NCBI RefSeq assembly: GCF_013366925.1
Contig: NZ_JAALDK010000001.1
Coordinates: 2,363,089-2,427,088, forward strand
DNA length: 64,000 nucleotides
Direction of reading: 5' to 3'
From: Paraburkholderia youngii
Lineage (GTDB): Bacteria; Pseudomonadota; Gammaproteobacteria; Burkholderiales; Burkholderiaceae
A program made the position numbers and the translations under genes. Numbering within the stretch: the stretch's first letter is position 1; the number at the start of each line of letters is the position of its first letter. This document shows positions 27,327-49,892 of this stretch, piece after piece. Below the pieces are notes generated by a model. That model saw only the letters and a program-made list of their open reading frames with translations. It was not told the DNA's origin and did no database searches.

Positions 27327-28205
27327 ATGAGACCGTATCTCCCGCTGAACGCACTGCGCGCGTTCGAATCGTCCGCGCGGCATCTGAGCTTCACGCGCGC
27401 CGCGCAAGAGCTGAACGTGACCCAGGCCGCGGTCAGCCAGCAGGTCCGCTCGCTGGAGGAGCGGCTCGGCACCGCGCTATTCAAGCGTTTGCCGCGCGGC
27501 CTCGCGATGACCGACGAAGGGCTCGCGCTGCGGCCGGTGCTGTCCGACGCGTTCGATCGTATCGAGGCGGTGCTCAAGCAGTTCGACGGCGGGCATTTCC
27601 ACGAGGTGCTGACGGTCGGTGTGGTCGGCACGTTCGCGGTCGGCTGGCTGATGCCGCGCCTGAAGTCGTTTCGCGACGCGCATCCGTTCGTCGAACTGCG
27701 GCTCCTGACCAATAACAACCTCGTCGATCTCGCGACCGAAGGCCTCGATTTCGCGATCCGTTTCGGCGACGGCACCTGGCCCGGCTCGCTCGCCACCAAG
27801 CTGCTCGACGCGCCGCTCGCGCTGCTCTGCACGCCCGAGATCGCCGCGCGCCTCACGCGGCCCGACGATCTCGCCAACGAAACGCTGCTGCGCTCGTACC
27901 GCATGGACGACTGGATGAACTGGTTCGCGGCCGCGGGCATCGCGCCGCGGCCGGTGCGCGGGCCGGTGTTCGATTCGTCGCGGCTGATGGTGGAGGCGGC
28001 GATACAAGGCGCGGGCATCGCGCTCGCGCCTGCGTTGATGTTCGAACGGGAGATCAATACCGGGCGTCTGGTGCGCCCGTTCGACGTCGAGGTGAAGGCG
28101 GGCAGCTACTGGCTGACCTGCCTGAAGGGCAAGCCCATGACGCCGGCGATGTTGCTGTTCAGTCAGTGGCTCGCCAAGGAAGCGGCCACCGCGGGTCACG
28201 CCTGA
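27327..28205 (+). CDS. LysR-family regulator (GcvA-like)
   Basis: LysR-type regulator of 292 residues. The N-terminal helix-turn-helix is in the stretch LPLNALRAFESSARHLSFTRAAQELNVTQAAVSQQVRSLE, the arrangement typical of the GcvA/AmpR subgroup. The effector domain follows from about residue 90. It is divergent from the DUF4126 gene, and its last 10 bases overlap the convergent 85-residue gene at 28196. Target unknown. Confidence 0.9.
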   Translation: MRPYLPLNALRAFESSARHLSFTRAAQELNVTQAAVSQQVRSLEERLGTALFKRLPRGLAMTDEGLALRPVLSDAFDRIEAVLKQFDGGHFHEVLTVGVVGTFAVGWLMPRLKSFRDAHPFVELRLLTNNNLVDLATEGLDFAIRFGDGTWPGSLATKLLDAPLALLCTPEIAARLTRPDDLANETLLRSYRMDDWMNWFAAAGIAPRPVRGPVFDSSRLMVEAAIQGAGIALAPALMFEREINTGRLVRPFDVEVKAGSYWLTCLKGKPMTPAMLLFSQWLAKEAATAGHA

Positions 28206-28453
28206 GTTGCTACGCGGCCGTACCCGTTCATCGCGGGCCGCTCGGCTTGCGGCGGGAACACGTTCCACGAACCGTCGCCGTGGCGGAAGAAGAAGATCGA
28301 CAGCAATCCTTCCGGCTTCAACGCTTGCACGCATACATAGCGTTGCTGTTGTGACGCGCGATGGCAGAACCGCACGACGCGCGCGGGCATCGACGGCGTG
28401 GGCGCGAGCCATTTGTCGACGGCCCAGTGCAAGCTCTTTTCCGCGGCAACCAT
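28196..28453 (-). CDS. 85-residue hypothetical protein downstream of LRAT-like gene
   Basis: Small protein not assigned to a family. It has no signal peptide; recognisable stretches are LHWAVDKWLAP and GLLSIFFFRHGDGSWNVFPP. ATG at 28453 follows GAGGAGA with good spacing. It is 40 bp after the LRAT-like gene on the same strand and is probably the second gene of that sigma-54-promoted unit. Its 3' end overlaps the convergent lysR gene by 10 bp. Confidence 0.65.
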   Translation of the reverse strand: MVAAEKSLHWAVDKWLAPTPSMPARVVRFCHRASQQQRYVCVQALKPEGLLSIFFFRHGDGSWNVFPPQAERPAMNGYGRVATQA

Positions 28454-28493
28454 GATGTTCTCCTCGAATCGCCCCGTTCCCAGCGCGCCGCGT

Positions 28494-29015
28494 TCACGCG
28501 AATTGCACGAGTTGCGCCGCGCGGTGATCGTTCCTCGCCCCGCTCTCGACAAACGCCTTCACGAGGCACAGCAGTGCGCGCACGCCCGTGCTCGGATGGC
28601 GCAGGCAGCAATCCACCTGATCGCTGCGGCTTTCGCCGAGCAGGCACCACGCGCAGAAGTGTTCGCAGTTGTTGGTCAGCAGGCGATAGCGGTTTTCGCC
28701 GAGGCGGGAGCGCGCGCGGCTCACTGCTTCGGCACCGACGTAGATCGCGCTCGGCGTCGCCCGAACCGACATCGAATGGCCAGCGGCGAAGCGCGCCAGT
28801 TCGACTTCCTCGACCGGGCCGCGATGCGCGGAACCCGCAAAGCCCGAGTAGTGCACGACGCGGCCGTTGCCGACATAGATGCCGTGATGTTCGTAGCCAT
28901 GGCGTTGCGTAACCAGATGCGCGCCGATCGGCAGATCGATCGTCGATGATGTGGTGTCGCAAGCGGCTGCGGATTGCGGTTCGTCGTCGCGGGTATCGAG
29001 CGTTTGGGTGTTCAT
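28494..29015 (-). CDS. LRAT-fold (NlpC/P60-like) acyltransferase or hydrolase
   Basis: Protein of 173 residues with the lecithin:retinol acyltransferase/H-REV107 fold. The three catalytic elements are in order: His43 in YEHHGIYVG, His55 in GRVVHYSG and Cys117 in NNCEHFCAWC. No signal peptide is seen. The family includes phospholipid acyltransferases and bacterial members of unknown substrate. ATG at 29015 follows GAGG; a longer start at 29042 is possible. A -24/-12 promoter lies upstream (29058-29073), divergent from the sigma-54 promoter of the GG-leader peptide gene at 29467, which places it in the same regulon. It could modify a peptide or a lipid, but the sequence does not show which. Confidence 0.8.
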   Translation of the reverse strand: MNTQTLDTRDDEPQSAAACDTTSSTIDLPIGAHLVTQRHGYEHHGIYVGNGRVVHYSGFAGSAHRGPVEEVELARFAAGHSMSVRATPSAIYVGAEAVSRARSRLGENRYRLLTNNCEHFCAWCLLGESRSDQVDCCLRHPSTGVRALLCLVKAFVESGARNDHRAAQLVQFA

Positions 29016-29057
29016 GGCTGGCCTCGTTCGCATTTCCAACACTGTTGCGACAGCTTT

Positions 29058-29073
29058 TGCATCATCCGGGCCA
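29058..29073 (-). promoter_or_regulatory. sigma-54 promoter of the LRAT-like gene
   Basis: On the minus strand the sequence is TGGCCCGGATGATGCA: GG and GC elements separated by exactly 10 bases, as required for sigma-54. It lies 42 bp before the LRAT-like start codon. Its central bases differ from the four peptide-gene promoters, so confidence is lower. Confidence 0.6.
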
Positions 29074-29082
29074 GTTGCCGGA

Positions 29083-29102
29083 AAGCCCGTATTTACGGGC
29101 TT
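29083..29102. repeat. perfect hairpin AAGCCCGTA/TACGGGCTT
   Basis: A 9-bp perfect inverted repeat with a 2-base centre, just upstream of the LRAT-like gene's sigma-54 promoter. No T-run follows. It could be a protein-binding site or an upstream terminator remnant. Confidence 0.45.
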
Positions 29103-29149
29103 GACGGCCGATCGAGCGGTTTTCTGAAGAGGTAGATGTCAGTACGAGA

Positions 29150-29176
29150 CCAACAGAAATCGCGCTGATCTGTTGG
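29150..29176. promoter_or_regulatory. candidate enhancer site (CCAACAG-N13-CTGTTGG)
   Basis: A 7-bp perfect inverted repeat in the divergent region. Related repeats lie upstream of the GG-leader genes at 42066 (minus) and 48260. It is 78 bp from the GG element of the LRAT promoter and about 215 bp from that of the peptide promoter, so one site could serve both. Proposed as a site for the sigma-54 activator at 30600-31955. Confidence 0.5.
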
Positions 29177-29389
29177 CGCGCGACGCTCATTTGCGAGCCG
29201 TGTCGCGCGCTGCTTCAGGTGAATGGAAAACGGAAGAGGACCCGCCTGAATGTGTTGGGTCCTACACCTGTTCGAAGGCGGGCTTGTTGGCCGGGAACCG
29301 ACCGATTGCGCCGACCGGATTCGTGGTAAAAGCCGCGAAACGCACGCCAGTCAAAGCGCTGCGGGTTTCGCGCCGAATCCGCCCCCGAT

Positions 29390-29405
29390 TGGCATGGCCT
29401 TTGCA
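29390..29405 (+). promoter_or_regulatory. sigma-54 promoter of GG-leader peptide A
   Basis: TGGCATGGCCTTTGCA: GG (29391-29392), 10 bases, GC (29403-29404), with TTGCA at -12. It is 62 bp before the start codon at 29467 and nearly identical to the promoters at 42143, 48170 and 49540. Confidence 0.85.
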
Positions 29406-29466: not shown

Positions 29467-29754
29467 ATGTCCTGCATCAAATTGAACGACCTCTCGCTGA
29501 ACCTCGCGCTCGATCGCAAAGCGATGGCGGCGATTCGCGGTGGCGGCGGCGCGCCATGGATCTATGGCTGGATTCAGCCATACGTGCCGCAAACGCCTAG
29601 CATTGGGCCGGTGGTCAATCTGTACGAGGTCTCCAACAACTTCTATGCTAACCAGATGATCAACCAGTTCCAGTCGGTCGACGTACGCAACACCGGCGCG
29701 AACGCGACCCTCACCGTGTCTCCAGACGCACGCAACCGAAACCAGATGGTGTAG
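29467..29754 (+). CDS. double-glycine leader peptide A
   Basis: Peptide precursor of 95 residues. The leader has the shared pattern (KLNDLS, LDRKAM, AIRGG) with GG at 25-26, followed by two more Gly. The core of about 69 residues is rich in Asn, Pro, Tyr and Trp (APWIYGWIQPYVPQTP) and has no Cys, so it is not a lanthipeptide or disulfide-bonded type. GGAG precedes ATG 29467. The PP2C gene starts 5 bp after the stop. The leader should be removed by the C39 domain of the exporter at 31952. Bacteriocin, signal or surface peptide are all possible. Confidence 0.85.
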   Translation: MSCIKLNDLSLNLALDRKAMAAIRGGGGAPWIYGWIQPYVPQTPSIGPVVNLYEVSNNFYANQMINQFQSVDVRNTGANATLTVSPDARNRNQMV

Positions 29755-29759: not shown

Positions 29760-30530
29760 GTGACCTGCGAGAGCCAATTTCGCTGGACATCGTCCGCGCG
29801 TTCCGACACGGGACGGGTCCGCGAAATCAACGAAGATGCCTGCCTCAACGAGCCCGAGGCGGGACGCTGGGCTGTCGCCGATGGGATGGGCGGTCACGCG
29901 GTCGGCGACGTTGCGAGCCGCACCGTGATCGACGCGTTGACTCAACTGGCAGCGCCGCACGGCCTCAGAATGCTGATCGCCGATGTACGCGCGCGTCTGC
30001 AATTCGCGAACCGTCAGTTGCGCGATGAAGCCGAGCGCCGCCAGGTGCAGCGCATCGGCAGCACCGTGGTCGTGCTGCTTGCCTGCGATCGCTTCTGCGG
30101 CTACGTGTGGGCCGGCGACAGCCGCATCTACCTGTACCGCGACGGACAGTTACGGCAACTGACGCGCGATCACAGCCAGGTCGAGGAACTGCGCTCGCTC
30201 GGCGTCATCACCGACGAAGAGGCACGCAATCATCCGGCGCAACACATGATCACGCGCGCGGTCGGCGCAACGGATCTGCTCGAACTCGACGACGACGCGA
30301 TCGAAGTCGCCGACGGCGATGTGTTCCTGTTGTGCAGCGACGGTCTGAGCAACGAACTGAGCGACGACGAAATCGCCGGCGTGCTGACCTCGGCGGAGCG
30401 TGAAAACGCATGCTGCGAACTGGTCGACCTCGCGCTCGCGCGCGGCGGACGCGACAACATCACGGCCGTGGTCGTCGAAGCGCAAGACCCGAATGCGGCG
30501 GACAAGACCTTGCTGAATCCGGCGCCTTGA
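29760..30530 (+). CDS. PP2C-family Ser/Thr protein phosphatase
   Basis: Mn/Mg-dependent protein phosphatase of 256 residues, cytoplasmic. Metal-binding motifs are complete: REINEDA near residue 24, VADGMGGHAVGD near 40, SDGLSNELSDDE near 195 and GGRDNITAVVVE near 230; the AGDSRIYLYRDG strand is typical of the Stp/PrpC type. It starts at GTG 29760, 5 bp after the stop of GG-leader gene A, so it is co-transcribed with it from a sigma-54 promoter. It is expected to oppose the kinase at 45676 and set phosphorylation of FHA ligands or of the activator. Confidence 0.92.
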   Translation: MTCESQFRWTSSARSDTGRVREINEDACLNEPEAGRWAVADGMGGHAVGDVASRTVIDALTQLAAPHGLRMLIADVRARLQFANRQLRDEAERRQVQRIGSTVVVLLACDRFCGYVWAGDSRIYLYRDGQLRQLTRDHSQVEELRSLGVITDEEARNHPAQHMITRAVGATDLLELDDDAIEVADGDVFLLCSDGLSNELSDDEIAGVLTSAERENACCELVDLALARGGRDNITAVVVEAQDPNAADKTLLNPAP

Positions 30531-30564: not shown

Positions 30565-30600
30565 TGGTTCCTTCAGTGGTCCCTTCAGTGGTCCTTCCAT
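30565..30600. repeat. three 12-bp tandem repeats between convergent genes
   Basis: TGGTTCCTTCAG, TGGTCCCTTCAG and an imperfect third copy, TGGTCCTTCCAT, fill the end of the gap between the phosphatase and the convergent activator gene. No function is evident. Confidence 0.6.
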
Positions 30601-31955
30601 CAGCCTTCGTCGTCTTCCTCATCGCGCTCGTTCGTGCCGTTTTTCGTGGGCGGCGCATTGCGATTGCGGAAATCCTTCGAGTGCAGGCCATGCTTTTTCA
30701 GCAGCATCTGCAAGTGCGAGCGATTCATATCGATGCGCCGCGCCAGCTCGGCGACCGTTCCGCCGACTTCACGCAGTCCGCGTTCGAGAAACGCTTTCTC
30801 GGCGTCGTCGCTGGCCGCCCGCTTCGCGTCGCTCAACGACATCAGATTCGCGACACTGATCGGCTGCTCGCCGCTCGCCTGCCCGCCCTCCGCCTGCGCC
30901 GCCGCTGAACCGGGTGCGGCCGGTCGCATATCGAGCGGCAAGTGCTCGACGTCGGCCATATCAGCAGCCAGACATGAGATGCGATACATCACGTTGCGCA
31001 ATTCGCGGATATTGCCCGGATACGCGTAGCTCAACAGAAAGTCGCGCAAACGCGGCGTCAATCTGACCGGCCTGCGTTTCAGCGTGCCCGCCGCCTCGTC
31101 GCCGAACCACGCAATCAGCAACGGAATTTCGTCGCGCCGTTCGCGTAGCGGCGGCAGCGTCACGTGAATCACGCTGAGCCGGTAGAACAGATCCTCGCGA
31201 AACCGGCCTTCCTCGCTGAGCTTGCGCAGATTGCGATTGGTCGCCGCGACGATGCGCGTATCGACCGCGATCGTTTCGTCGGAACCGACGCGTTGAATCT
31301 CGTGCGCTTCGAGCACGCGCAGCAGCTTGACCTGGCCCGCGAGCGGCAACTCGCCGATTTCGTCGAGAAAGATCGTGCCCGTGTGCGCGCTTTCGAATTT
31401 GCCCTTGCGGTCGTTCGACGCGCCGGTAAATGCGCCCTTGCGATGCCCGAAAAGCTCCGATTCCAGCAGATTGTCCGGAATCGCGCCGCAGTTCACCGAA
31501 ATGAACGGCTTGTCCGCACGCGCGCCATTCGCGTGAATCACTTTCGCCATCAGCTCTTTGCCGGTGCCGCTCTCTCCATCGATCAACACCGGCAAATCGG
31601 TCGGCGCGGCTTTTTCCGCGATTTCGAGCGATTCGAGCAGCCGCGGATTGTCGCCGAACGTGCCCTCGAAAATAAAGCTCCGTTCGAGCAGCGCCTTGCG
31701 GCGCGCTCCACGCGATTGCTCCGCGCTCGTCTGCGGCTCGCCCGCGGTGGCTGCCTGCACGAAGCGCTCCTTGTGCGAAAGCTGCATCACTTCGTCGCGC
31801 AACGAGGTGGCCTGCCTGAGCAGCTTGTCGATATCGGCGCGTTCGAGCCGCGACGACCAGCGCAACGTGGAGCGCAGGATCTCGATCCGCTCGATCAGTC
31901 CCGCGTACGATATCGCGGGACTCGCCTCTTCAATCTGGTCGAGTATCTTCATCAT
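30600..31955 (-). CDS. sigma-54-dependent transcriptional activator
   Basis: Bacterial enhancer-binding protein of 451 residues. The central AAA+ domain (about 95-320) has Walker A GESGTGKE, the sigma-54 contact loop GAFTGA, Walker [13 protein letters not shown] and the R-finger region [11 protein letters not shown]-terminal Fis-type helix-turn-helix ([25 protein letters not shown]) is near 390-420, with a charged tail. The N-terminal 95 residues are helical and match no receiver, GAF or FHA domain I recognise. Its start overlaps the exporter stop (ATGA), so it is made with the export machinery and probably activates the -24/-12 promoters of the GG-leader genes, giving positive feedback. ATG at 31955 or 31952 can serve. 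Confidence 0.92.
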
Positions 31956-34900
31956 GATGCACTCAACTGTTTCTGCACGAGCTGATAGTACATGCCGCCG
32001 CGCTGGATCAGCTCCTCGTGACGGCCCTGTTCGACGATCGCGCCTTCATACAGCACGAGAATCTTGTCCGCGCGCATGATCGTGCTGAGCCGATGCGCGA
32101 TGATCACCGCCGTGCGGCCCTTCAGGATGTCGTGCATATTGCCGAGAATATTGCTTTCCGATTGCGAGTCGAGCGCCGATGTCGCCTCGTCGAATACGAG
32201 CAGACGCGGATCGTGATACAACGCGCGCGCAATGCACAGCCGCTGGATCTGACCACCCGACAAGCCGATGCCGCGCTCGCCGACGACCTGCTCATAACCG
32301 AGCGGCATCTTGCTGATGAAGCCATGCGCGTCGGCCATTTTCGCGACCTCCTCGATGCGCCGGCGGTCCGGCGCGTCGTCGCCGCTCGCGATGTTCTCGG
32401 CTATCGTGCCCGAGAACAGCAGGTTGCTCTGCATCACGTAGCCGATTTGCGCGCGGAAATAAGCCTTGTCGATCACGCCGGAGTCGTAACCGTCGATCGT
32501 CATTTTCCCTTCGCTCGGCTGATAGAACCCGACCAGCAGCTTCGCGAGCGTGGTTTTTCCCGAGCCGCTGCGCCCGACGATCGCGACCAGTTCACCGGGC
32601 TTGATATCGAAGCTGATGTTCTCGAGCACATAAGCGGAATCCTCTTCGCCATAGCGGAAATAGACGCCTTGCAGACTGATTTCGCCCTGCAGTTCCGGCA
32701 GCATGACGCGGGAAGGCAGATCCTGCGGCTTCTGTTCGGGCTCGATATCGAGCACATCGCCGAGCCGTTCCATTGCGACACCCGCATCGTTGAGCATGCT
32801 CCACAAGCCGACGAGACCCATCAGCGGACTCAATACGCTGCCCATGAATGCATTGAACGCGATCAACTGGCCGATCGTCAATTCGCGTGCGAGTACCAGA
32901 TTCGCGCCGACCCAAAGAATCGCAATCGTCGTGGCCGCATTCAGCAATTGGCTGCCAAAGCTGACCAGAATATTGAATGCGTGCGCGCGATACTGCAATT
33001 CGAGCGCCTTCGCGTATTTCTTTTCCCAGCGCAAGCGCACCGGCCTCTCGATGCCCATGCCCTTGACCGTCTCGACGCCGGAGAGCGCCTCCATCAGGAA
33101 CGACTTCGCCTCGGTCGATGCCGTAAACACCTCGCGCGCGTAGCCCTTGATCTTCGGTGTCGCGATCACCGTGAGTCCCATGATCGGAATCACGAATGCG
33201 ATCAACACCAGCGTCATCTTCACGTTGTACACGAACATGATCGTGAAGTAGATGAAGATCATCAGCAGATTCAGCGCGGTCGTCACGGTGGATTCGGTCA
33301 GGAACGCGCGGATCGTCTGGTTCTCCTGAAAGCGCGCGAAGATATCGCCGGTCTTGCGCTTTGCGAAGAATGAGAACGGCAGCGACAACGTATGCTTGAA
33401 GAACTGCGACATCATTGCGAAATCCATGTTGCGGACCATGAAGTTCGCAAGATACGCGCGTATCGTCGACATCAGCTGTGTAAAGACGCTGGAGATGATG
33501 AGCCCGCCGATCAGCATATGCAGCAGACTGACGTTCTGATGCACGATCACGCCGTCGAGAATGTTCTGAATGATCAGCGGTGGAATCACGCCGAGCACCT
33601 GGATCACGAAGGTCGCCAGGAATAGATAGCCGAGTATCTTGCGGTACGGCTTCAGGTATCCGACAAAACGAATCCACGGCGAGCGCTCGGCCGACATCTG
33701 CAACAGTTGCGATCCGCCGGTAAACAATAGGCAGGTGCCGCTCCAGCCGCGTTCGAAATCTTCGACGCTCAGCTTTCTGAAACCGAGTGCCGGGTCCGCC
33801 ACCCAGACATACTCTTTCGACAGCCCGTACACGATCACATAGTGGTAGCCCTCCCAATGCACGATGAACGGCAGATCGAAGCCGCGCAGCGAATCGAACG
33901 TGCATTGCACCCCGCGCGTCGTGAAGCCGAGCGACTCGCCCGCGCGCGCGAGGCTGTCGAGCGTCGCACCCTGCGTCGTCACGTTCGCGAGTTCGCGCAG
34001 TTTGCCGAGCGTCATCGGAATGCCGTAATGGCGGCAGATCATCGCGAGACACGCGGCGCCGCAATCCATTTCCTCGGCCTGCTCGACGAGCGCGAAACGC
34101 CGGATGATCTTCTCGCCGAGTTCCGGCCTGCTCTGCAGGTCGAGCATCAACGGCAGCTTGCGCCGCTGTTCGAGCCGCTTTTGGCGCTGCAATTCGCGGT
34201 CGCCGTAGCGGATGCGCTCGTCGAGTACTTCGCGCAGTTTCGGATTGCGTTCGAGAATGAAATGGACGGTACGCTCGGGGATCACCAGCAGCCGCGTGTC
34301 GGTGGTCGCAACCACCGATGCCATCTGTTCCTGGCGCATCAGGCACGCCTTCTCGCCGAAGATTTCGCCTTCGCCGAGCGTCGCGAGCGTGTAGTCGTGA
34401 CCCTCCTCGTGCCGCACGATGCGCACCTGGCCTTGCCGCACCACATAAAGCCGCCTGTCCTCGCGGCCGTCCTGTTTCAGAATCTCCTTGCCGGCAGCCA
34501 CCCTTTTTGCGCCGACGCTGCGCACGTACTCTTCGAGTTCCGCCTTGTTCAGCTTGCCGCGCAGGTCGAACAGTTGCGCGACGAAGCCGCCGGCCGAATT
34601 GATCGCGACATAGCTGGCGACGAACGCCAGCGCGGCGGCGTTGGCCGCCATCACCGGTTCGATCGCGCTGCGCGGAATGAACAGCACTTCGGTCTTGCCG
34701 GACGAACGTACCGACGCTTCGTGAACGTACGAGCGCAACATCGCAATGTCGGCAAAGATCTCCCCCGACTTGCGCACGCCCATGCTGGTTTCCTTGCCGT
34801 GCTCCTCGGTAAAGATACGCACCGTGCCCGAGCGGATCACAAAGAGACCATCGGCCACTTCGCCAGCCGAGCACACCGTTTCGCCGAACGAATAGAACTT

Positions 34901-42066: not shown

Positions 42067-42142
42067 GGCAAAACTCCTGGGAAAGGGAAAGCGCATCGTG
42101 GTGCGTCGGGTTCGAGCAACTTGTCTGCTCGGGCGCTACTGA

Positions 42143-42158
42143 TGCATGGGCTATGCCA
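42143..42158 (-). promoter_or_regulatory. sigma-54 promoter of peptide B and the export operon
   Basis: On the minus strand TGGCATAGCCCATGCA: GG, 10 bases, GC. It lies 76 bp before the start codon at 42066 and probably drives peptide B plus the six downstream genes to 30600. Confidence 0.85.
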
Positions 42159-42278: not shown

Positions 42279-42303
42279 CCAACAGCGCACGCGGCATTGT
42301 TGG
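42279..42303. promoter_or_regulatory. candidate enhancer site (CCAACA-N13-TGTTGG)
   Basis: An inverted repeat with 6-bp arms, extending to GCAGCCAACA/TGTTGGTTGC with one mismatch. It is 122 bp upstream of the GG element of promoter B; the equivalent repeat before peptide C has the same 13-bp spacing and is 126 bp away. Confidence 0.55.
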
Positions 42304-42317: not shown

Positions 42318-42755
42318 TCAGCGCGCGATCACCGTGATCTTCTTCGAATACACCGGCGGGTTATGCGGCATATGCATGTCGTCGCCCATCAACAGCTGCA
42401 ACGTATGCCTGCCCGGCGGCAATGAAATCATCGTTTCCGTTTCGCCCGCGCCGAAATGCAGATGGTGGCGATCCGAGGGTATCTCCTGATCCAGCGGCGG
42501 CAGCTCGCTATCGATCAGAAGATGGTGGTGGCCGGTGTTCGGGTACTTCACGCCTTTCGGTGCGACGCCCATGAAGCGCAGGCCGAACCACACGCGAAAC
42601 GGCTTATTGGCGGGCACCACCTGGCCATCGTTCGGATAGCCGATATACGCGTAGGCGCTGGGCGGCGACGGCGTTGCTGCCCACCCACCCTGCGGCGCTG
42701 TCGATGCCGTCAGCGCCGCCGCGACGAATGCCGCGGCCGCAATGATCTTGTTCAT
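42318..42755 (-). CDS. DUF4399 exported protein 1
   Basis: Exported protein of 145 residues: Sec signal (ends near GGWAA), then a DUF4399 domain with the His-rich motifs YPNTGHHHLLID, SDRHHLHFGAGET and HMPHNPPVYSKKI. The His clusters suggest metal binding, which is inference. ATG at 42755 follows GGAGAG. It lies 46 bp downstream of a paralogue. The role of these proteins beside the peptide system is unknown. Confidence 0.85.
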   Translation of the reverse strand: MNKIIAAAAFVAAALTASTAPQGGWAATPSPPSAYAYIGYPNDGQVVPANKPFRVWFGLRFMGVAPKGVKYPNTGHHHLLIDSELPPLDQEIPSDRHHLHFGAGETETMISLPPGRHTLQLLMGDDMHMPHNPPVYSKKITVIAR

Positions 42756-42801: not shown

Positions 42802-43305
42802 TTAGTCTTTTAGCACAGTGATGGTGATCTTCTTCGAATACACCGGCGGGTTGTGCGGCACGTGATGATGGTCGCCAAGAATCAGCTGAAGCGTGTGCTT
42901 GCCGGGAGGCAACTCGATGCGCGCGTCGGTTTCGCCCGCGCCGAAATGCAGGTGCTGGCGGTCCGATGGAATCTCCTGGTCGAGCGCGGGCAAATCCGTG
43001 TCGATCAGCAGATGATGGTGGCCGGTATTCGGAAACGCGATGCCCTTCGGACACACGCCCATATTGCGCAGCCCCATGCGCACCCACAGCTTGCCGCCGT
43101 GAATCACCGCGCCATCCGACGGCCAGATGATGTACTCCTCGGCCCCCGGTGGTGACGCCGTCTGCTCGGCGCGCGCGACGCCGCCCGTTCCTATGCCGAT
43201 GCACACCGCGACGAGCGTCGCGCACACCGCCGCGCGCAATCCGCCGCAATGCGCTTGTGCCGGATCACGTCTGCCGAAAAGAGAGGAAACACGGGTTCTT
43301 CGCAT
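42802..43305 (-). CDS. DUF4399 exported protein 2
   Basis: Protein of 167 residues, paralogous to the one at 42318. A longer N-terminus with a hydrophobic segment (about 22-46) probably acts as a signal peptide; the domain has FPNTGHHHLLID, SDRQHLHFGAGET and GDHHHVPHNPPVYSKKI. ATG at 43305 follows GGGAGAG. It is the first gene of the tandem pair and is divergent from the caspase-like gene. Confidence 0.85.
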   Translation of the reverse strand: MRRTRVSSLFGRRDPAQAHCGGLRAAVCATLVAVCIGIGTGGVARAEQTASPPGAEEYIIWPSDGAVIHGGKLWVRMGLRNMGVCPKGIAFPNTGHHHLLIDTDLPALDQEIPSDRQHLHFGAGETDARIELPPGKHTLQLILGDHHHVPHNPPVYSKKITITVLKD

Positions 43306-43616
43306 AGCGCACTCTCCCGAACAGGAGTCATGGCTGGGCCCGGCTATCGATGGGCATCCGGGTGTTCGAGCGGCTTGTCGCGGATTGAAACCGGTAGACA
43401 GCCACCTAGTTAAAACGGCCGTGTGAGGTGACTTTGTGAATCAGCTTAGAACTTAACTTGCTAAAAAGATACGCAATGCTCGTTAACCGTATGACGCGTT
43501 CAGGACTCCCGGACAGTTATGACGCGAAGCGCGTGCTATCGTTAATAATGAGCGCGGACAGCGCGATCGTGGTGCGCGAATGCCTGAATTCTGTCCGGTA
43601 CAAACAGGATAAAACG
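43306..43616. other. divergent promoter region upstream of caspase-like gene
   Basis: A 311-bp region with no supported gene. An open frame continuous with the caspase-like gene extends back to 43458 but lacks a ribosome site. No convincing -24/-12 promoter was seen on either strand. Confidence 0.55.
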
Positions 43617-45647
43617 ATGTGGCGACGATTCCTGCTGGTGTGCGTGGTTGGGGCAATCCAGGCGCAGTGGGATAGCGCCGGTGCCGCGACGCAACGCGAA
43701 TTCATCGAGCCGAGTGCGGCTTCGGTGACGAGTGAACCGGGGCGGCCGGCGGATACCGCTCTGCTCCTTTCACCCTTTGCTTCGTCACGCGGCGACACCC
43801 ATTCGCGGCGTATCGCGCTCGTGATAGGAAATGGCGAATACGGCGACGCCACTAACCCGATCCGCGCCAACGCGCCGCGCGACGCCGAATCGATCGGCGC
43901 TGCACTCCGGGCGCGTGGCTTCGAAGTCATCACGCGCACGAATGCGACGCCGCCGCAAATGCGCGCGGCGATCGACGAATTTCAACGACGTTTGAAGACA
44001 GGCGATATCGGGCTGTTCTATTTCGCCGGACACGGCATGCAGGTAGCCGGACAAACGCTGCTGTTGCCGGCGGGACTCGATGCTCGAGCCGATAACCGCG
44101 CACCGGTGTCGCTGCTGAATAACGGCGTCGAACTGAATACCGTCTTGCATGCGATGCAATCCGCTCGCGCCGGCCGGCTCAATCTGCTGATTCTCGATAC
44201 CTGCCTCGACGATCCATTTAGGCCCGCCGAGATTGCGATCGACCAACCGAAGCTCGCTGCCAACACCGTGATTGCCTACGCAACCGCGCCGGGTGGTTTC
44301 GCGGCGGACGGTCCGCGGCATGGCGTCTACACCGGTGCGTTGCTGCAAGCGCTCGATGATGCCGACGCATCGTCCCGATCGCTCGCCGCGCTGTTCCGCC
44401 AAGTCGCCACCGAGGTGCGCGCCGCCACTCGCGGAGCGCAGCAGCCGTGGCTCTCCGTAGCGCGTACTTCCATTCCCACCAGTGGCGAACGCACTATTGC
44501 GTCGTCGATAACGTCGGACGATCGCGCCGTAATAGCGCGCAGTCGCGGCATCATGCCGAAGGAAAGCGGCGAACAATACGAAATCACGTTCTGGGAGTCG
44601 ATCAAGGACAGCAACTACCCAGCCGATTACGAGGCTTATCTGAAGGCCTATCCGAATGGGCGCTTCGCCACACTCGCGCATGCGCGTATCGATCGATTGC
44701 GCGCGGCGGCATCGACTCCGGCGGTGAGTGGTGCGCAACCAGCCGCGCCCGCGGCGCAGAGCGGGCATGTCGCGCCACCCGCACCGCCTGCTCAGCTCGC
44801 GCATCCCGCGGCGCAAGCGAGCGCGGCCGCGCCGCCACCACCGCGCCCCGCTGCCGCGCCAGCGCCGACGCCGCCCGCCACGGCCGCCGCTGCGCCCTTC
44901 GCCGAAAAGACCGTCGCCCATCCGCCGACCGCCGGTGAAATCCGCGACTGCGCCGCCTGTCCGATCATGGTCGCCGTACCCGCCGGCTCGTTCGCAATGG
45001 GCAGCAATACCGACGACCCTTCGGAAAAGCCCGTGCATCGCGTGAGCATCGGCGCACCCTTCGCGATCGGCAAATTCCCGGTGACGGTCGAGCAATGGAA
45101 TGCGTGCGTCGCCGCCGGCGCATGCCAGAAGCTGACCCCGGAGAGCAATAGCATCAAGACCGCACCCGCGCGCGATCTGAGTTGGGACGACGCGCAGCAG
45201 TACGTCAAATGGCTCGCCAAAACGACCGGCAAACCGTACCGTCTGCCGACCGAAGCCGAATGGGAATACGCGGATCGCGCCGGCACCACGACCGCGTACT
45301 GGTGGGGCGATCAGATGCGCAAGGGCAACGCCAATTGCAAGGACTGCGGCGACCCGTGGCACAAGGAAGGACCGGAAAACGTCGGCACGTTCGCCGCGAA
45401 TCCGCTGGGTCTGTACGACATGAACGGCGGCGTCTGGGAGTGGACCGCCGACTGCTGGCACAACTCCTATCAGGGCGCACCCGCCGACGGCCACGCATGG
45501 GACACGCCCGGCTGCGAGATGCGCGCGATTCGCGGCGGCTCATGGCGCGAAGGCGGCGACTACATGCTCAGCGCGACGCGCTTCAAATACAGCGCGGGCG
45601 TGCGTCAATCGCAGAACGGTTTTCGCGTCGTCAAGGATTTGCGCTGA
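43617..45647 (+). CDS. exported caspase-like peptidase fused to SUMF1/FGE-type domain
   Basis: Protein of 676 residues. A Sec signal ([16 protein letters not shown] and following, cleavage near 24) is followed by a C14 caspase-like domain (about 63-300) with catalytic His139 in FYFAGHGMQ and Cys196 in [11 protein letters not shown]. Then come a short helical segment (about 320-365), a Pro/Ala linker (about 365-440) and a formylglycine-generating-enzyme-like domain (about 445-676) with [35 protein letters not shown] and [11 protein letters not shown] at 43617 gives the signal peptide; longer frames do not. It converges on the kinase gene with a 28-bp gap. It may process or sense exported peptides. 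Confidence 0.88.
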
Positions 45648-45675: not shown

Positions 45676-47826
45676 TCATGGCTTGGCGGGTTTGGTCGTA
45701 ATCGGCGCGAAGTCCGCCAATAGACGATCCTGCCCGTATTGGCCGCCGATCTGCTTCAACCGCGTCTCGAGCGCGCGCAGATAATCGGCGCGCGCTTCGC
45801 TTTCCGGGCGCAGCTTGTCGAACAGCGGCACCGGGGTCACCACCAGCACCACCATCTCCGAGCCGAACGGCTTCGATACGGTCCAATCGCCCGCATTGCT
45901 GCCGATCGTGTACGGACCGCCGTTGGCCTGCATCTGGTTGTCCGGCCACAGACGGCTCGGCACCATGTGCACGACGTGGCCGTCTAACTGGTAGTAGTCG
46001 ACGGTCGCGAAGGAATCGAACGGAGGCGCTTTCAGGTCGACCACCAGCGAGTCGTTCTCGGTCAGCAAACCGCTTGGCGGTCGCATATGCAGCGACGCTG
46101 CCCGTCCCGCCTGCCAGTTGCGCACCAGAAACGGCGCAAGCGTTTTGACGAAGTCGCATTTGTCGTCGGCGAGCGGCCGCACGTCGAGCGAAACCGTATC
46201 GACGCCAGGCAGCGCCGCCAAGGTCTCCTTCAGACGCGCGGCGCCGTACCGCTGCGACAGGAAACCGCGCACCGTCAGTGCGTGGTCCTGCACTGCGCCC
46301 GATAAAGCCGAACACGGTACCCGGGCAAGCGTGGGCGTGATCGCCGCAAGCGTCAACGCGGGCTTGGGCGCGGGCGCCGGCGTCGCGGTTGCGGCCGCAC
46401 CACCCGTTGTAGTACTGCCTTCATTCGCGCCAGCCGAAGGCGCTGTCTGTGCGGCATTCGTTGCAGGCGCGACAGCGGACGCCGCAGCCGCGCGATCGAC
46501 CTGATCGCCCAGCGGTCCCGCCGCCTCGGAACGCGCGGCCTGCTGCCGGTTGGACCCCGAGCGAACAGCGAACACGCCCACCGTAACCGCGCACACGACG
46601 GCCAGCGTAGCGAGCCCGGCCCATGCGAGCGACCCGGACTTCTCCGCGCGCGCTTCATTGTCGAACTCGGCGATAAAGCGCACGACGCTCGGCATCCGCG
46701 TATTGCGGTCGAACGACAACGCGGCACGCAACGCGCGCCATTGGCGCGCATCGAGATTCGGCGGACGCTGCGGCTTGAACTCGGCATTGCGCGCCTGGGT
46801 AGCCGACAGGCGATCGAACGGATGATGTCCGGTCAGCAGCTCGTAGGTGATGCAGCCAAGCGCGTAGATGTCGTCGCGCGGGTCAGGCTCGCGATGCTCG
46901 ATCATCTCCGGGCTCGCATAGGCCGGCGTCAACGCGCCGAGACTGCCGGGATCGAACACGGTCGCGTCGCTCTCCTCTTCCGGCCGTTGGAATACGCGCG
47001 CGATGCCGAAGTCGATCACTTTCACTTCGGCATTGGTGGTCAGAAACACGTTCGCGGGTTTGAAATCGCAATGGACGAAGCCGCGCTCGTGCGCGTACGC
47101 GAGCGCCGCGCACATGCCGCGCACGATCGGCAGCGCGGCCCGCACCGGCATCCCCTGATATCCAGGCGTGCGCAGCAGCTGGCTGAGCGGCTTACCGCTC
47201 AGATACTCCATCGTCAGATAGACGATCGGCCCGTCGCGGTCGAAGTCGTACACGGTGATGATGTTGCGATGCGCGAGCACCTGCGCCTTGCGTGCTTCGC
47301 GCTGCAACGCGACCAGCGAATTCGGATTGCCGCGAAACTGGACGTTCAGAACCTTGATCGCGAGATAGGGCTTGCGGTCCGACGCTTCGAGCTTGCGCAG
47401 ATCGAGCGCCTTGTACACGGTGCCCATGCCGCCCACGCCGAGGCACTCTTCGAGCACGAAGCGGTTGTTCAGGGTATCGCCGATGCCTTTGATGGTTTCG
47501 TGCGCGGTGCTTCCAGTGGTACTCGCGCTGCCCGCGCCGCCCGCGCTCGACGAACGCAGCGGCAGTAGATCGACCGTGGTCTGTATGCCGGTTTCCTCGC
47601 CGCCCGCCGCGACGTTCGACACGCGCAGCAGCTCGATGCGCCGCCGCACTTCCAGATAGAGATCGTCGGGCAACGGTGACTTGTGATGCGCGGCGTACAG
47701 CGTCTCCAGCAGCCGCGTCGGACCGAGTTGCTCGGTCGCCAACGCGCTGTCGAGCTGCGCGACGAACTCGTCGCGCGACAGCTCGCCGCTCTGGAAGTCG
47801 AGAATCACACGCGCAAGGCTAGCCAT
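45676..47826 (-). CDS. membrane Ser/Thr protein kinase (Hanks type, non-RD)
   Basis: Kinase of 716 residues. An N-terminal helical extension (about 1-110) precedes the kinase domain (about 120-385): Gly loop LGVGGMGTVYK, Lys158 in LAIKVLN, catalytic loop HCDFKPAN with Asp254, and DFG at 272-274. The usual Arg before the catalytic Asp is Cys253, so it is a non-RD kinase and may not need activation-loop phosphorylation. One transmembrane helix (about 401-421), a Pro/Ala-rich linker and a periplasmic DUF4384-like domain (about 590-690) follow. It is the natural writer for the FHA protein at 37201 and the opponent of the phosphatase at 29760. ATG at 47826 was chosen over GTG at 47880. Confidence 0.9.
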   Translation of the reverse strand: MASLARVILDFQSGELSRDEFVAQLDSALATEQLGPTRLLETLYAAHHKSPLPDDLYLEVRRRIELLRVSNVAAGGEETGIQTTVDLLPLRSSSAGGAGSASTTGSTAHETIKGIGDTLNNRFVLEECLGVGGMGTVYKALDLRKLEASDRKPYLAIKVLNVQFRGNPNSLVALQREARKAQVLAHRNIITVYDFDRDGPIVYLTMEYLSGKPLSQLLRTPGYQGMPVRAALPIVRGMCAALAYAHERGFVHCDFKPANVFLTTNAEVKVIDFGIARVFQRPEEESDATVFDPGSLGALTPAYASPEMIEHREPDPRDDIYALGCITYELLTGHHPFDRLSATQARNAEFKPQRPPNLDARQWRALRAALSFDRNTRMPSVVRFIAEFDNEARAEKSGSLAWAGLATLAVVCAVTVGVFAVRSGSNRQQAARSEAAGPLGDQVDRAAAASAVAPATNAAQTAPSAGANEGSTTTGGAAATATPAPAPKPALTLAAITPTLARVPCSALSGAVQDHALTVRGFLSQRYGAARLKETLAALPGVDTVSLDVRPLADDKCDFVKTLAPFLVRNWQAGRAASLHMRPPSGLLTENDSLVVDLKAPPFDSFATVDYYQLDGHVVHMVPSRLWPDNQMQANGGPYTIGSNAGDWTVSKPFGSEMVVLVVTPVPLFDKLRPESEARADYLRALETRLKQIGGQYGQDRLLADFAPITTKPAKP

Positions 47827-48020: not shown

Positions 48021-48045
48021 AGCCAACAGGGTCCGCCGCGATGTC
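48021..48045. promoter_or_regulatory. candidate enhancer site (CCAACA-N13-TGTCGG)
   Basis: An inverted repeat with one mismatch (TGTCGG for TGTTGG), 13-bp spacing, 126 bp upstream of the GG element of promoter C. Geometry matches the site before peptide B. Confidence 0.45.
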
Positions 48046-48169
48046 GGACTGCCACCACCGCCGCTAGCGCGTCAACGCGTTTCGAGCGGACCGGCGCGGC
48101 GGCCGAACCTCGCACAAAACCCTTATACGACAAGGCTTCGTCGATTTCCTCAGGATACGTGGCCACCAC

Positions 48170-48185
48170 TGGCACAGCCTGTGCA
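48170..48185 (+). promoter_or_regulatory. sigma-54 promoter of peptides C and D
   Basis: TGGCACAGCCTGTGCA: GG (48171-48172), 10 bases, GC (48183-48184). The TGGCAC box is a perfect match to the sigma-54 -24 consensus. It is 75 bp before the start of peptide C, nearly the same distance as for peptide B. Confidence 0.85.
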
Positions 48186-48259
48186 TTAGTGATGCCCGAG
48201 CAAACGAATTGCTCGAAACCACTCGCGACACTGCGAAAACTTCCTTCAGGAGACTCACC

Positions 48260-48617: not shown

Positions 48618-48917
48618 ATGTCATCCCTCATGATTCGCGATCTGCCCGGCGCGCGCGAACTCGATCGCCGGACCATGTCCGGGATCGCCGGCGGCACCGG
48701 CAGCAACGTGCCCATGCCCTCGGGCCCTGGTGGTCTCGGCAGCCTTGCCGGCATCGCCAACGTCAACGTCAATGTCAACGTCACTCAGAATCTGGCTCAA
48801 CAGCAAATCGTCAATGTCGCAGCGCTCAATGACATCGGCTTTATCGGCTCGGACGTCGTGCTGCCGAAGCTGAAAGTCGATCCGATCCTGGCGGGCGCGA
48901 ACCTCTCCGCCGTGTAG
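48618..48917 (+). CDS. double-glycine leader peptide D
   Basis: Precursor of 99 residues. Leader with LMIRDLP, LDRRTM and GIAGG, GG at 25-26. The core of about 73 residues starts TGSNVPMPSGPGGLG and contains an Asn-Val alternation (NVNVNVNVT) that suggests beta structure or assembly; it has no Cys. AGGAG precedes ATG 48618. It has no -24/-12 element of its own and is probably read from promoter C. Confidence 0.87.
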   Translation: MSSLMIRDLPGARELDRRTMSGIAGGTGSNVPMPSGPGGLGSLAGIANVNVNVNVTQNLAQQQIVNVAALNDIGFIGSDVVLPKLKVDPILAGANLSAV

Positions 48918-49057
48918 GCCGAGGCACCAGCGGGGGACCGGGGGTTCCTTCACTGCCGCGACAGCACCACGACCGCGCACGCCGCGAACGGATTTCCTAT
49001 ACTGATAGTGCGTTGAGACCGCAGTAAAACGAATAGCACACTGAACACATTCCGAGC

Positions 49058-49101
49058 CCGGCGGCCGGAACCCGAACGGGTCTGGCCGCCGGCGCGTTTT
49101 T
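49058..49101 (+). terminator. intrinsic terminator directly before peptide E
   Basis: A 9-bp stem CCGGCGGCC/GGCCGCCGG (49058-49066 with 49084-49092) with an inner ACCCG/CGGGT stem, followed by GCGCG and TTTTT. It ends 11 bp before the peptide E start codon, in its leader, so it either ends the C-D unit or attenuates E. Confidence 0.7.
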
Positions 49102-49112
49102 CTGGAGCCGTC

Positions 49113-49331
49113 ATGGCCAAGCTGAGCATCAAGGATCTGACCGAAAGCGTCGAACTCGACCGCGAGGCGATGGCCGCGATCGTCGGCGGCGCTCGTGTCG
49201 GCGCGCGGTCGAGTCTCGCCGCGCCGCTGGTGCCGGCCGCGACGCGCGTCGTCGAATACCCGCCGGGCTTTCCGGACGCGCATCTGCGTATCGCGGAAGC
49301 CGCTGCGCCGCGCAAAGGGCGACGCCGCTAG
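49113..49331 (+). CDS. double-glycine leader peptide E
   Basis: Precursor of 72 residues. Leader with LSIKDLT, LDREAM and AIVGG, GG at 25-26. The core of 46 residues is basic and Ala/Arg/Pro-rich (starts ARVGARSSLAAPLVP, ends RKGRRR), with no Cys; short cationic cores are typical of antimicrobial peptides. CTGGAG precedes ATG 49113. No -24/-12 promoter was seen upstream, only a terminator hairpin, so its expression control differs from its neighbours. Confidence 0.82.
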   Translation: MAKLSIKDLTESVELDREAMAAIVGGARVGARSSLAAPLVPAATRVVEYPPGFPDAHLRIAEAAAPRKGRRR

Positions 49332-49539
49332 CATTGCTCGCGGGGGCGTTTCAGCATCACGGCACGCGCGACGCTGCGCCGCGCCCCAACCTTTCGCACG
49401 CGACCCGTGCGACGCGCGCAAACACTTCGACTCGAGATCGCGGTCGTATCCGGTGTGATTCAATGCGGCTATCGCGCGGATCCTTGCCAGGTTTCGCATC
49501 GCGGCCCCCGCTCCATTTTGCGGCTCACTTCCCCTACGT

Positions 49540-49555
49540 TGGCATAGCCCTTGCA
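49540..49555 (+). promoter_or_regulatory. sigma-54 promoter of peptide F
   Basis: TGGCATAGCCCTTGCA: GG (49541-49542), 10 bases, GC (49553-49554), matching promoters A, B and C. It is 55 bp before the peptide F start codon. Only a CCAACC half-site was seen about 150 bp upstream. Confidence 0.85.
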
Positions 49556-49610
49556 GAAATCGAGGCGGGCGCCGCACTGTGCTCGCCTTTTCACGTCAAG
49601 GAGAAATGCC

Positions 49611-49820
49611 ATGAAAGCCACTGTGATCATCAAAGACCTGCCACCCGGCGCGCGCGAGCCATCCGACGACAAAACGCTGAGCGCCGAAAAGATGAAGACG
49701 TTGCGCGGCGGCCGATCGGTAGTCGTCAAGGTGGACGGTGGCGGCACGGGCACCGTCGACGATTGGGACATCAACACCGCGATCTTCGAAGGCCGCATCA
49801 ACGGACCCTACCTTCTATAG
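49611..49820 (+). CDS. double-glycine leader peptide F (divergent leader)
   Basis: Precursor of 69 residues. The leader is longer than in A-E (VIIKDLPPG, then SAEKMKTLRGG) with GG at 33-34; it keeps IKDL and the hydrophobic-x-x-x-RGG end but lacks the central LD. The core has about 35 residues (starts RSVVVKVDGGGTGTVDDW), is acidic and Gly-rich and has no Cys. AAGGAG precedes ATG 49611. Its sigma-54 promoter supports membership of the same set. Confidence 0.8.
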   Translation: MKATVIIKDLPPGAREPSDDKTLSAEKMKTLRGGRSVVVKVDGGGTGTVDDWDINTAIFEGRINGPYLL

Positions 49821-49844
49821 GACGCGCGACGTGTCCACAATTGG

Positions 49845-49892
49845 AAAAACGGCACCCGGCTCATGTTCTGAGCGCAATGGGTGCCGTTTTAA
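49845..49892. terminator. intrinsic terminator after peptide F
   Basis: A 12-bp stem AAAACGGCACCC/GGGTGCCGTTTT (49846-49857 with 49879-49890) with an inner GCTCA/TGAGC stem. T-runs on both strands make it bidirectional. It closes the peptide cluster on the right. Confidence 0.85.

What the first reader, a model, noticed from the sequence alone, without database searches (positions are those of the whole stretch)
28196..49892. A sigma-54-controlled, phospho-regulated export system for double-glycine-leader peptides
About 21 kb contain everything needed for a regulated peptide export system: six GG-leader peptide genes, a C39-peptidase ABC exporter with two cNMP-like domains, HlyD adaptor, NodT outer-membrane channel, cytoplasmic parvulin, sigma-54 activator, two-FHA membrane protein, PP2C phosphatase, Ser/Thr kinase, caspase-like/SUMF1 protein and an LRAT-fold protein. 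The exporter parts resemble HetC/PCAT-type systems known from cyanobacteria, but I know of no described Burkholderia system with this combination of phospho-signalling and sigma-54 control. The peptide cores mostly lack Cys and look unmodified, so the products could be contact-dependent signals, structural surface peptides or bacteriocins. Function is inference; the gene set and shared promoters are read from the sequence.
Basis: partly seen in the sequence, partly recalled or inferred. Interest (0 to 1): 0.95.

Follow-up and report, generated by a model that had tools for sequence, protein, structure and literature searches.

The report
Switch-controlled peptide secretion system in Paraburkholderia
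A 21-kb gene cluster, found with the same main genes in many Paraburkholderia, Caballeronia and Cupriavidus genomes, encodes six small peptides with a shared leader, an ABC exporter predicted to trim and secrete them, and sigma-54-type promoter sequences in front of four of the peptide genes, so these bacteria likely release a dedicated set of peptides on command, for a purpose not yet tested.

Summary
All named genes and six GG-leader peptide genes lie at 28.2-49.8 kb of a 9.49-Mb Paraburkholderia-like genome. The exporter joins two cNMP domains, an apparently intact C39 peptidase and an ABC part. The locus is widely conserved: of 80 named relatives (Paraburkholderia, Caballeronia, Cupriavidus) 80 have HlyD and the two-FHA protein, 79 each the sigma-54 activator, exporter and NodT, 77 PP2C. 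In 398 family genomes parvulin and PepA-like peptides co-occur in 154; one genome has only the first, three only the second. Sigma-54 control gains real support: the four best -24/-12 sites of the window precede peptide genes, and a dyad found here, CCAACA-N13-TGTTGG, sits about 147 bp before the -24 element of the PepB-type gene in 57 of 73 loci. Strong purifying selection on the PepA core and the lack of a recognised immunity gene speak against a bacteriocin. The transport core resembles cyanobacterial HetC-type and bacteriocin-cluster exporters; activator, FHA protein, kinase and phosphatase are the added layer. Cleavage, export and phospho-gating are inferred; the peptides' role is unknown. 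New variant of a known kind.

The parts
28196..28453 (-). small protein of about 85 aa, no family, beside LRAT
   Evidence: No Pfam hit; found in 19 of 22 same-genus loci
28494..29015 (-). LRAT-fold protein (His and NCEHF motifs seen by eye)
   Evidence: Pfam LRAT 6.4e-23; 70 of 80 named loci
29150..29176 (+). dyad CCAACA-N15-TGTTGG upstream of PepA (candidate activator site, wider spacing)
   Evidence: Read from sequence; N15 form at up to 1 mismatch in 44 of 66 PepA promoters against 9 of 417 random stretches
29390..29405 (+). sigma-54 -24/-12 element of PepA, TGGCATGGCCTTTGCA
   Evidence: 23.6 bits, third best in window; a -24/-12 element in 66 of 68 named loci with PepA
29467..29754 (+). 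PepA, 95 aa GG-leader peptide
   Evidence: core under strong purifying selection
29760..30530 (+). PP2C phosphatase, 5 bases behind PepA, so probably in its operon
   Evidence: Pfam PP2C_2 1e-14; 77 of 80 loci
30600..31955 (-). sigma-54 activator (AAA+ with lid; HTH-like C-terminus by eye; no sensor domain found), overlapping the exporter gene by 4 bases
   Evidence: Pfam Sigma54_activat 1.6e-70; 79 of 80 loci
31952..35020 (-). exporter: cNMP-cNMP-C39 peptidase-ABC, 1022 aa
   Evidence: Pfam; C320, H393, D409 kept in alignment A2 (8 rows) except C320 and H393 in L105; only ABC-joined one of two C39 proteins found in the genome
35060..35812 (-). parvulin, 250 aa, no signal peptide seen by eye
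   Evidence: Pfam Rotamase 1.5e-10; TIGR04500 97.7 bits, under its cut-off of 180
35850..37238 (-). HlyD adaptor (start uncertain)
   Evidence: Pfam HlyD_3 3.8e-18; TIGR01843 176.2 bits, cut-off 208.65
37201..39888 (-). protein with two FHA domains, one hydrophobic stretch by eye, then a long C-terminal part (start uncertain)
   Evidence: Pfam FHA 2.2e-30, two stretches; 80 of 80 loci
40054..41574 (-). NodT-type outer-membrane channel (start uncertain)
   Evidence: TIGR01845 311.4 bits, cut-off 210.05
41782..42066 (-). PepB, 94 aa GG-leader peptide
   Evidence: PepB-type gene in 73 of 80 loci
42143..42158 (-). sigma-54 element of PepB, TGGCATAGCCCATGCA
   Evidence: 25.3 bits; an element in 73 of 73 named loci with a PepB-type gene
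42279..42303 (-). perfect dyad CCAACA-N13-TGTTGG, 145 bp before the -24 element
42318..42755 (-). DUF4399 protein
   Evidence: Pfam 2e-35
42802..43305 (-). DUF4399 protein
   Evidence: Pfam 1.1e-37
43458..45647 (+). caspase-like plus SUMF1/FGE protein (start uncertain)
   Evidence: Pfam Peptidase_C14 1.4e-31, FGE-sulfatase 2.2e-55; 75 of 80 loci
45676..47826 (-). Ser/Thr kinase with DUF4384-like C-terminus (likely start at 47826)
   Evidence: Pfam Pkinase 1.7e-40; a match in 20 of 22 same-genus loci, partial in some
48023..48047 (+). dyad with one mismatch, 147 bp before the PepC -24 element
48170..48185 (+). sigma-54 element of PepC, TGGCACAGCCTGTGCA
   Evidence: 21.3 bits
48260..48529 (+). 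PepC, 89 aa, paralogue of PepB
   Evidence: 63% identical to PepB
48618..48917 (+). PepD, 99 aa, probably co-transcribed with PepC
   Evidence: no promoter of its own
49113..49331 (+). PepE, 72 aa
   Evidence: no promoter of its own
49540..49555 (+). sigma-54 element of PepF, TGGCATAGCCCTTGCA
   Evidence: 26.0 bits, best of the window
49611..49820 (+). PepF, 69 aa

Best explanation
This is a conserved gene cluster for six GG-leader peptides whose genes are likely switched on by the linked sigma-54 activator and whose products are predicted to be cut after the GG and exported by the linked cNMP-C39-ABC exporter through HlyD and NodT. The activator (30600-31955) would bind the CCAACA-N13-TGTTGG dyads and open the -24/-12 promoters of PepA, PepB, PepC(-D-E) and PepF. 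Because no terminator-like or sigma-70-like site was found between PepB and NodT on their strand, the PepB promoter may also feed the NodT-FHA-HlyD-parvulin-exporter-activator genes, giving positive feedback (inferred). PP2C lies 5 bases behind PepA and would be induced with it. The kinase, the two-FHA protein and PP2C would gate the exporter after translation by Ser/Thr phosphorylation, and the cNMP domains would add a ligand check (inferred). The mature peptides are probably unmodified secreted surface or signalling peptides rather than bacteriocins (inferred). Shown: gene content, synteny, co-occurrence, promoter and dyad conservation, selection on the cores. Inferred: every biochemical step.
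For: Gene set: 22 of 22 fetched same-genus loci have activator, exporter, parvulin, HlyD, FHA and NodT; PP2C 20, kinase 20, LRAT 20, caspase 21 of 22. In 80 named loci (the best 80 of 212 found): parvulin 80 (the query), FHA 80, HlyD 80, activator 79, exporter 79, NodT 79, PP2C 77. Co-occurrence in 398 family genomes: parvulin 155, PepA family 157, both 154, neither 240 (overlap counted by me from the two lists). Promoters in the named loci: PepA 66 of 68, PepB-type 73 of 73. Dyad: 57 of 73 PepB-type promoters at up to 1 mismatch; the 61 at up to 2 mismatches all lie 145-148 bp before the -24 element, against about 0.5% of random 260-bp stretches with a copy at up to 1 mismatch. Genera not used to find the dyad have it too: perfect N13 in 3 of 5 Cupriavidus loci with a PepB-type promoter (L188, L189, L193), perfect N15 before 5 of 8 Caballeronia PepA genes (L180, L181, L184, L190, L191). 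The six distant class loci fetched keep activator, exporter and an FHA protein together. PepA core dN/dS 0.12, close to the leader's 0.10.
Against: No experiment is held. No convincing GG-leader gene was found by pattern in the six distant class loci (the one pattern hit, in L103, overlaps the FHA gene), and one of their exporters (L105) has lost the C39 Cys and His, so GG peptides are not fixed partners of this module. The N13 dyad is absent from all 66 PepA promoters tested (44 have an N15 form), is not seen at up to 2 mismatches before PepF in the window, and is missing at up to 1 mismatch in 16 of 73 PepB-type loci: all seven Caballeronia, two Cupriavidus and seven Paraburkholderia. A perfect dyad also lies between two sigma-54-like sites at an unrelated gene cluster. 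Two Paraburkholderia PepA genes (L175, L177) lack a recognised -24/-12 element. The plain consensus scan is at chance. Structure prediction gave no fold for PepA or PepB.
Confidence: 0.75

Rival explanations
1. The peptides are class II bacteriocins (microcin-like) that kill relatives, and the regulation times their release.
For: C39-ABC, HlyD and outer-membrane channel are the usual microcin exporter set (recalled); cyanobacterial clusters with a similar transport core are called bacteriocin clusters; PepB-type cores vary (dN/dS 0.42) and PepB-type genes are tandemly repeated in some Caballeronia and Cupriavidus loci.
Against: PepA core is under strong purifying selection and the family spans genera; no gene is recognised as immunity by Pfam, though the small ORF and the DUF4399 proteins are of unknown function; several different cores per locus; the main genes keep their arrangement across genera.
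Confidence: 0.15
2. The cluster is a signalling circuit: secreted peptides are sensed (for example by the kinase's C-terminal domain or the caspase-like protein) and feed back on the activator through FHA and PP2C.
For: Kinase, FHA protein, phosphatase and activator are kept together; PP2C follows PepA directly; HetC, a studied exporter of this type, is needed for cell differentiation.
Against: No receptor identified; cores of 35-73 residues after the GG are long for a pheromone; the activator has no recognised sensor domain.
Confidence: 0.3
3. The mature peptides are structural: they assemble on the surface or in the matrix (amyloid-like or adhesive).
For: N/Q-rich cores with a shared Q-x-(I/L)-x-Q-like pattern in PepA, B, C and D by eye; strong conservation of PepA.
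Against: No Pfam match to curlin or other fibre repeats in 25 PepA and 31 PepB/PepC members; predictions without a fold do not show assembly.
Confidence: 0.35
4. The sigma-54 signal is coincidental and the peptide genes are read from ordinary promoters.
For: A plain consensus scan of the window is at chance level.
Against: Conserved element in 66 of 68 and 73 of 73 relatives plus the dyad and the linked activator.
Confidence: 0.03

Closest known systems
Cyanobacterial bacteriocin gene clusters (PMC3140520, passages read): C39-ABC exporter, HlyD and, in groups I, II and VI, a SurA-like rotamase
   Same: The paper describes a long-type exporter with about 300 extra N-terminal residues, HlyD, rotamase and GG precursors (the passages do not say which groups have the long type). 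The Nostoc HK-01 plasmid exporter is 43% identical over 721 residues and lies beside HlyD, a parvulin match and a PpiC gene.
   Different: One cNMP stretch found instead of two in both cyanobacterial exporters scanned; HopA1 and APH-like genes beside it in Tolypothrix PCC 7910, none here. Here a sigma-54 activator, FHA protein, PP2C, kinase and NodT; none of these is among the annotated names there, but the hypothetical genes there were not scanned.
HetC of Nostoc PCC 7120 (PMC10986499, passages read)
   Same: cNMP domain, C39 peptidase, ABC exporter in one chain. In that paper the cNMP part is needed for function and binds ppGpp in vitro.
   Different: One cNMP domain; no adaptor gene near hetC; substrate unknown.
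Solved relatives: HlyB (7sgr), bacteriocin transporter PCAT (4ry2), ComA (8hf4)
   Same: C39-like plus ABC parts aligned from about residue 307-315 to 1016; HlyB is the best match (E 1.2e-140).
   Different: The chains are 707-730 residues and have nothing aligned to the cNMP part.
Threonine phosphorylation pathway of type VI secretion (PpkA, PppA, Fha; recalled)
   Same: Kinase, PP2C phosphatase and FHA protein in one secretion locus; sigma-54 activators are known there too (recalled).
   Different: The machine is a type I exporter; no type VI component was named by Pfam among the cluster genes scanned.
Rv1747 of Mycobacterium (FHA-bearing ABC exporter under a Ser/Thr kinase, recalled)
   Same: FHA tied to an ABC exporter; its FHA domain is among the matches of our FHA protein (6cah, E 2.6e-4).
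   Different: There FHA and ABC are one chain; no C39 and no GG peptides (recalled).

Membership tests
Peptidase-containing ABC transporter (PCAT) | C39 peptidase, ABC membrane and ATPase domains in one chain | tested here: met
   Pfam, all above cut-off
Peptidase-containing ABC transporter (PCAT) | Catalytic Cys, His, Asp of C39 | tested here: met
   C320, H393, D409 by motif in alignment A2; which residues are catalytic is recalled
Peptidase-containing ABC transporter (PCAT) | Cuts GG leaders and exports the core | not testable with these tools
   Needs biochemistry; GG precursors are in the same cluster
HetC-type exporter | N-terminal cNMP domain before C39 | tested here: met
   Two cNMP stretches; HetC has one
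HetC-type exporter | Role in cell differentiation, ppGpp binding | not testable with these tools
   No call bears on it
NHLP bacteriocin export system (TIGR03796, TIGR03794, TIGR03797) | Scores over curated cut-offs | tested here: not met
   563.7 of 853.3; 69.5 of 156.2; 402.9 of 709.4 bits
TIGR04500 peptide maturation PpiC-like | Score over cut-off 180 | tested here: not met
   97.7 bits
Sigma-54 activator | Sigma54_activat AAA+ domain | tested here: met
   236.6 bits, cut-off 20.2
Sigma-54 regulated genes | -24/-12 element at the promoter | tested here: met
   PepA, B, C, F; D and E have none of their own
Sigma-54 regulated genes | RpoN-dependent transcription | not testable with these tools
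   Needs an rpoN deletion
Modified RiPP (lanthipeptide and the like) | Maturation enzyme in the cluster | tested here: not met
   No such Pfam hit among the 13 non-peptide cluster genes scanned; the FGE domain is the only enzyme that could be considered
Class II bacteriocin or microcin | Killing activity and immunity gene | tested here: inconclusive
   No immunity gene recognised by Pfam, but genes of unknown function exist; activity not testable; core conservation speaks against
Curlin or other fibre repeat | Pfam repeat match | tested here: not met
   None reported at E up to 1 for 25 PepA and 31 PepB/PepC members; the filters drop most matches above about 0.1

The most novel reading that the evidence does not exclude
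A phospho-gated type I secretion system: the kinase-phosphatase-FHA switch known from type VI secretion works here on a HetC-like peptide exporter, and a sigma-54 activator co-transcribed with that exporter couples export capacity to expression of a fixed kit of unmodified, conserved secreted peptides that serve as surface or signalling factors across Burkholderiaceae.
Probability: 0.4. Interest if true: 0.82.

Novelty: new variant of a known kind. Interest (0 to 1): 0.68.

Why it matters
About two in five of the family genomes sampled carry the parvulin marker of this locus (155 of 398), yet the PepA proteins that carry a name in the list seen are called hypothetical (120 of 768 listed), and no paper describing the system was found in the eight searches made. 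It would add a regulated peptide-release route to this family, gives a concrete activator-dyad-promoter set to test, and offers a second machine type for FHA/kinase/phosphatase control of secretion.

Tried and rejected
Plain sigma-54 consensus in the window: at chance level; replaced by a matrix from relatives. That matrix was made from 58 distinct sites already filtered for GGC and TGC, so those positions are fixed by construction, and they come from PepA and PepB-type genes of the named loci; PepC and PepF sites of the window were not in its training set.

Curlin-like reading of the N/Q-rich cores: no Pfam support and no fold predicted (PepB mean pLDDT 56.6, PepA 34.3); kept only as a possibility. 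No fold search was run.

LRAT as a further sigma-54 target, a site I considered: it is not among the sites above 9 bits.

FGE-like modification of the cores: five of six cores lack Cys; not pursued.

Anti-phage reading: PADLOC matches are to general kinase, AAA+ and cNMP parts; rejected.

5' UTR hairpins: the PepC leader folds better than shuffles (z -2.75), the other three do not clearly (z -1.42, -0.91, -1.42); not pursued.

Literature: eight searches of an open-access library gave no description of this system; most subscription papers are not held. PMC10986499, PMC3140520 and PMC8305402 were seen as passages (the searched terms for this locus gave nothing specific in the last); other papers only as search listings.

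Cupriavidus and Caballeronia are: by matching coordinates they bear other genus labels (g297, g304) than the 22 loci used.

The printed table was cut in the middle; its counts are from the tally at its end.

Full report
What is there. The window lies in a 9.49-Mb genome of four contigs. Named genomes with the closest parvulin are Paraburkholderia (98% in P. atlantica and P. translucens). The exporter has two cNMP stretches, C39, ABC membrane and ATPase parts; C320, H393 and D409 are in place. The Pfam C39 model finds two proteins in the genome; this is the only one joined to an ABC transporter, the other being a 237-aa protein with what looks like a signal peptide.

The peptides. Six genes encode precursors of 69-99 aa with a leader of the type M..L.IKDL....LD..AM.A(I/V)RGG, looser in PepD, E and F. 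PepB and PepC are paralogues (63% identity). The PepA family has 768 proteins at E up to 0.01 in a large protein collection; of the 120 listed, none has a Pfam domain and those that carry a name are called hypothetical. Structure prediction gave no fold. In 39 distinct PepA sequences from L115-L163 leader and core have about the same identity (0.88, 0.89) and low dN/dS (0.10, 0.12); in 49 PepB-type sequences the core is freer (identity 0.62, dN/dS 0.42) than the leader (0.89, 0.25).

Conservation. Among 34 same-genus relatives, 23 have a match to this exporter at 76% identity or more including the cNMP part (one of them, G008, split in pieces); in 24 same-order genomes outside the family the listed matches are at most 43% identical and start at residue 286 or later. 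22 of the 23 were fetched: activator, exporter, parvulin, HlyD, FHA and NodT matches in 22; caspase and at least one DUF4399 in 21; PP2C, LRAT and kinase in 20. In G021 the missing PP2C and LRAT lie beyond the stretch I fetched; its named counterpart L174 has both. A scan of named genomes found 212 relatives; the best 80 were kept: parvulin (the query), HlyD and FHA 80, activator, exporter and NodT 79 each, PP2C 77, DUF4399 76, caspase 75, LRAT 70, kinase 35 (the kinase lies at or beyond the edge of the fetched DNA; some contigs are short). In L183 the PP2C-LRAT end is turned round, and in G018 the kinase and several peptide genes lie on the other side. Parvulin is in 155 of 398 family genomes, 8 of 25 genera; PepA-like peptides in 157 of the same 398. 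By my count of the two lists, 154 have both, one (G708) parvulin only, three (G599, G633, G780) peptide only, 240 neither; some PepA matches are weak and may rest on the leader. In 300 genomes of the order no hit fell outside the family. In 369 genomes of the class a related rotamase model matched 40, none over its cut-off; the contexts of the six best apart from our own were fetched (the 33 weaker ones were not), and in all six the activator, a cNMP-C39-ABC exporter of over 1000 aa and an FHA match lie together, in two (G221, G254) the run to NodT at 31-72% identity. No convincing GG-leader gene was found by pattern in these six, and the L105 exporter has lost the C39 Cys and His.

Regulation. 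Elements of the form (T/C)GGC-N8-TGC lie 50-130 bp before the ATG of PepA in 66 of 68 named loci and of the PepB-type gene in 73 of 73. A matrix from 58 distinct such sites puts the four window sites at 21-26 bits, the next at 14.1. Looking for shared dyads upstream gave CCAACA-N13-TGTTGG: perfect before PepB, one mismatch before PepC. In the named loci 57 of 73 PepB-type promoters have it at up to one mismatch; all 61 copies at up to two mismatches lie 145-148 bp before the -24 element, while about 0.5% of random stretches of the same loci have a copy at up to one mismatch. PepA promoters have an N15 version in 44 of 66 (9 of 417 random) and the N13 version in none. Cupriavidus L188, L189 and L193 have the perfect N13 form (L182 and L187 do not), and five of eight Caballeronia PepA promoters the perfect N15 form, though these genera were not used to find it; the seven Caballeronia loci with a PepB-type gene lack N13. 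The two-base difference of spacing is not explained. The whole genome has 11 sites at up to one mismatch against 5 for the reversed control pattern.

Operons. PP2C starts 5 bases behind PepA. Exporter and activator genes overlap by 4 bases. Between PepB and NodT neither a terminator-like site on their strand nor a sigma-70-like promoter was seen, so PepB's promoter may serve the export operon; this is inference.

How it probably works. Activator plus sigma-54 turn on the peptide genes; the exporter takes the precursors by their leader, C39 cuts after GG, and the core passes HlyD and NodT. The parvulin, without a visible signal peptide, may keep precursors unfolded in the cytoplasm. Kinase, FHA protein and PP2C may gate exporter assembly, as recalled for type VI secretion and for Rv1747. 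None of this was tested. Bacteriocin is disfavoured by the constant PepA core and the lack of a recognised immunity gene; structural and signalling roles stay open.

Against known systems. Cyanobacterial loci share the transport core: Nostoc HK-01 (exporter 43% identical, HlyD, PpiC, four small tandem genes of which the one read has a GG motif) and Tolypothrix PCC 7910 (with HopA1 and APH-like genes). PMC3140520 describes such clusters with HlyD and SurA (passages), and PMC10986499 reports that HetC needs its cNMP part and that this binds ppGpp in vitro (passages). Activator, FHA, PP2C and kinase are not among the annotated names of the two cyanobacterial loci; their hypothetical genes were not scanned. 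NHLP and TIGR04500 cut-offs are not met. Eight literature searches found no account of the system. I therefore call it a new variant of a known kind.

Noticed in passing
G000:C1:1186417-1186527(-), locus L228: A seventh GG-leader gene far from the cluster, with a Pro/Cys-rich core and a sigma-54-like element (TGGCATGTTGCGTGCA) 82 bp before its ATG; no N13 or N15 dyad at up to two mismatches in 400 bp. A further leader-like match at C1:5147145 (E 3.7e-5, L227) was not resolved into a gene by my pattern.
   Followed up: partly
G000:C2:1536772-1536796, loci L207 and L217: A perfect CCAACA-N13-TGTTGG dyad between two diverging sigma-54-like sites at an unrelated cluster whose genes look by eye like Coq4, acyl-carrier, radical SAM, tryptophanase-like and hydroxyphenylpyruvate-dioxygenase-like proteins. 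It may be a second target of the same activator.
   Followed up: partly
   Followed up: partly
G008 contig C6, locus L102: In a 5.2-Mb same-genus genome the exporter match is split into several pieces while its neighbours persist, which suggests decay of the system.
   Followed up: no
G000:C1:563975-564376, loci L002 and L232: A C39 protein with a likely signal peptide beside a protein with repeated GN-rich motifs, recalling Fap amyloid loci (recalled).
   Followed up: no
window 42064-42146(-) and 48182-48262(+): PepB and PepC transcripts would begin with a CGAGCA...TGCTCG hairpin just after the promoter; only the PepC leader folds clearly better than shuffles.
   Followed up: partly
loci of G001, G007, G031: Three further tandem GG-leader genes with FASP-type cores beyond the cluster in each; the first of each set has a sigma-54-like element 83-86 bp before its ATG.
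   Followed up: no
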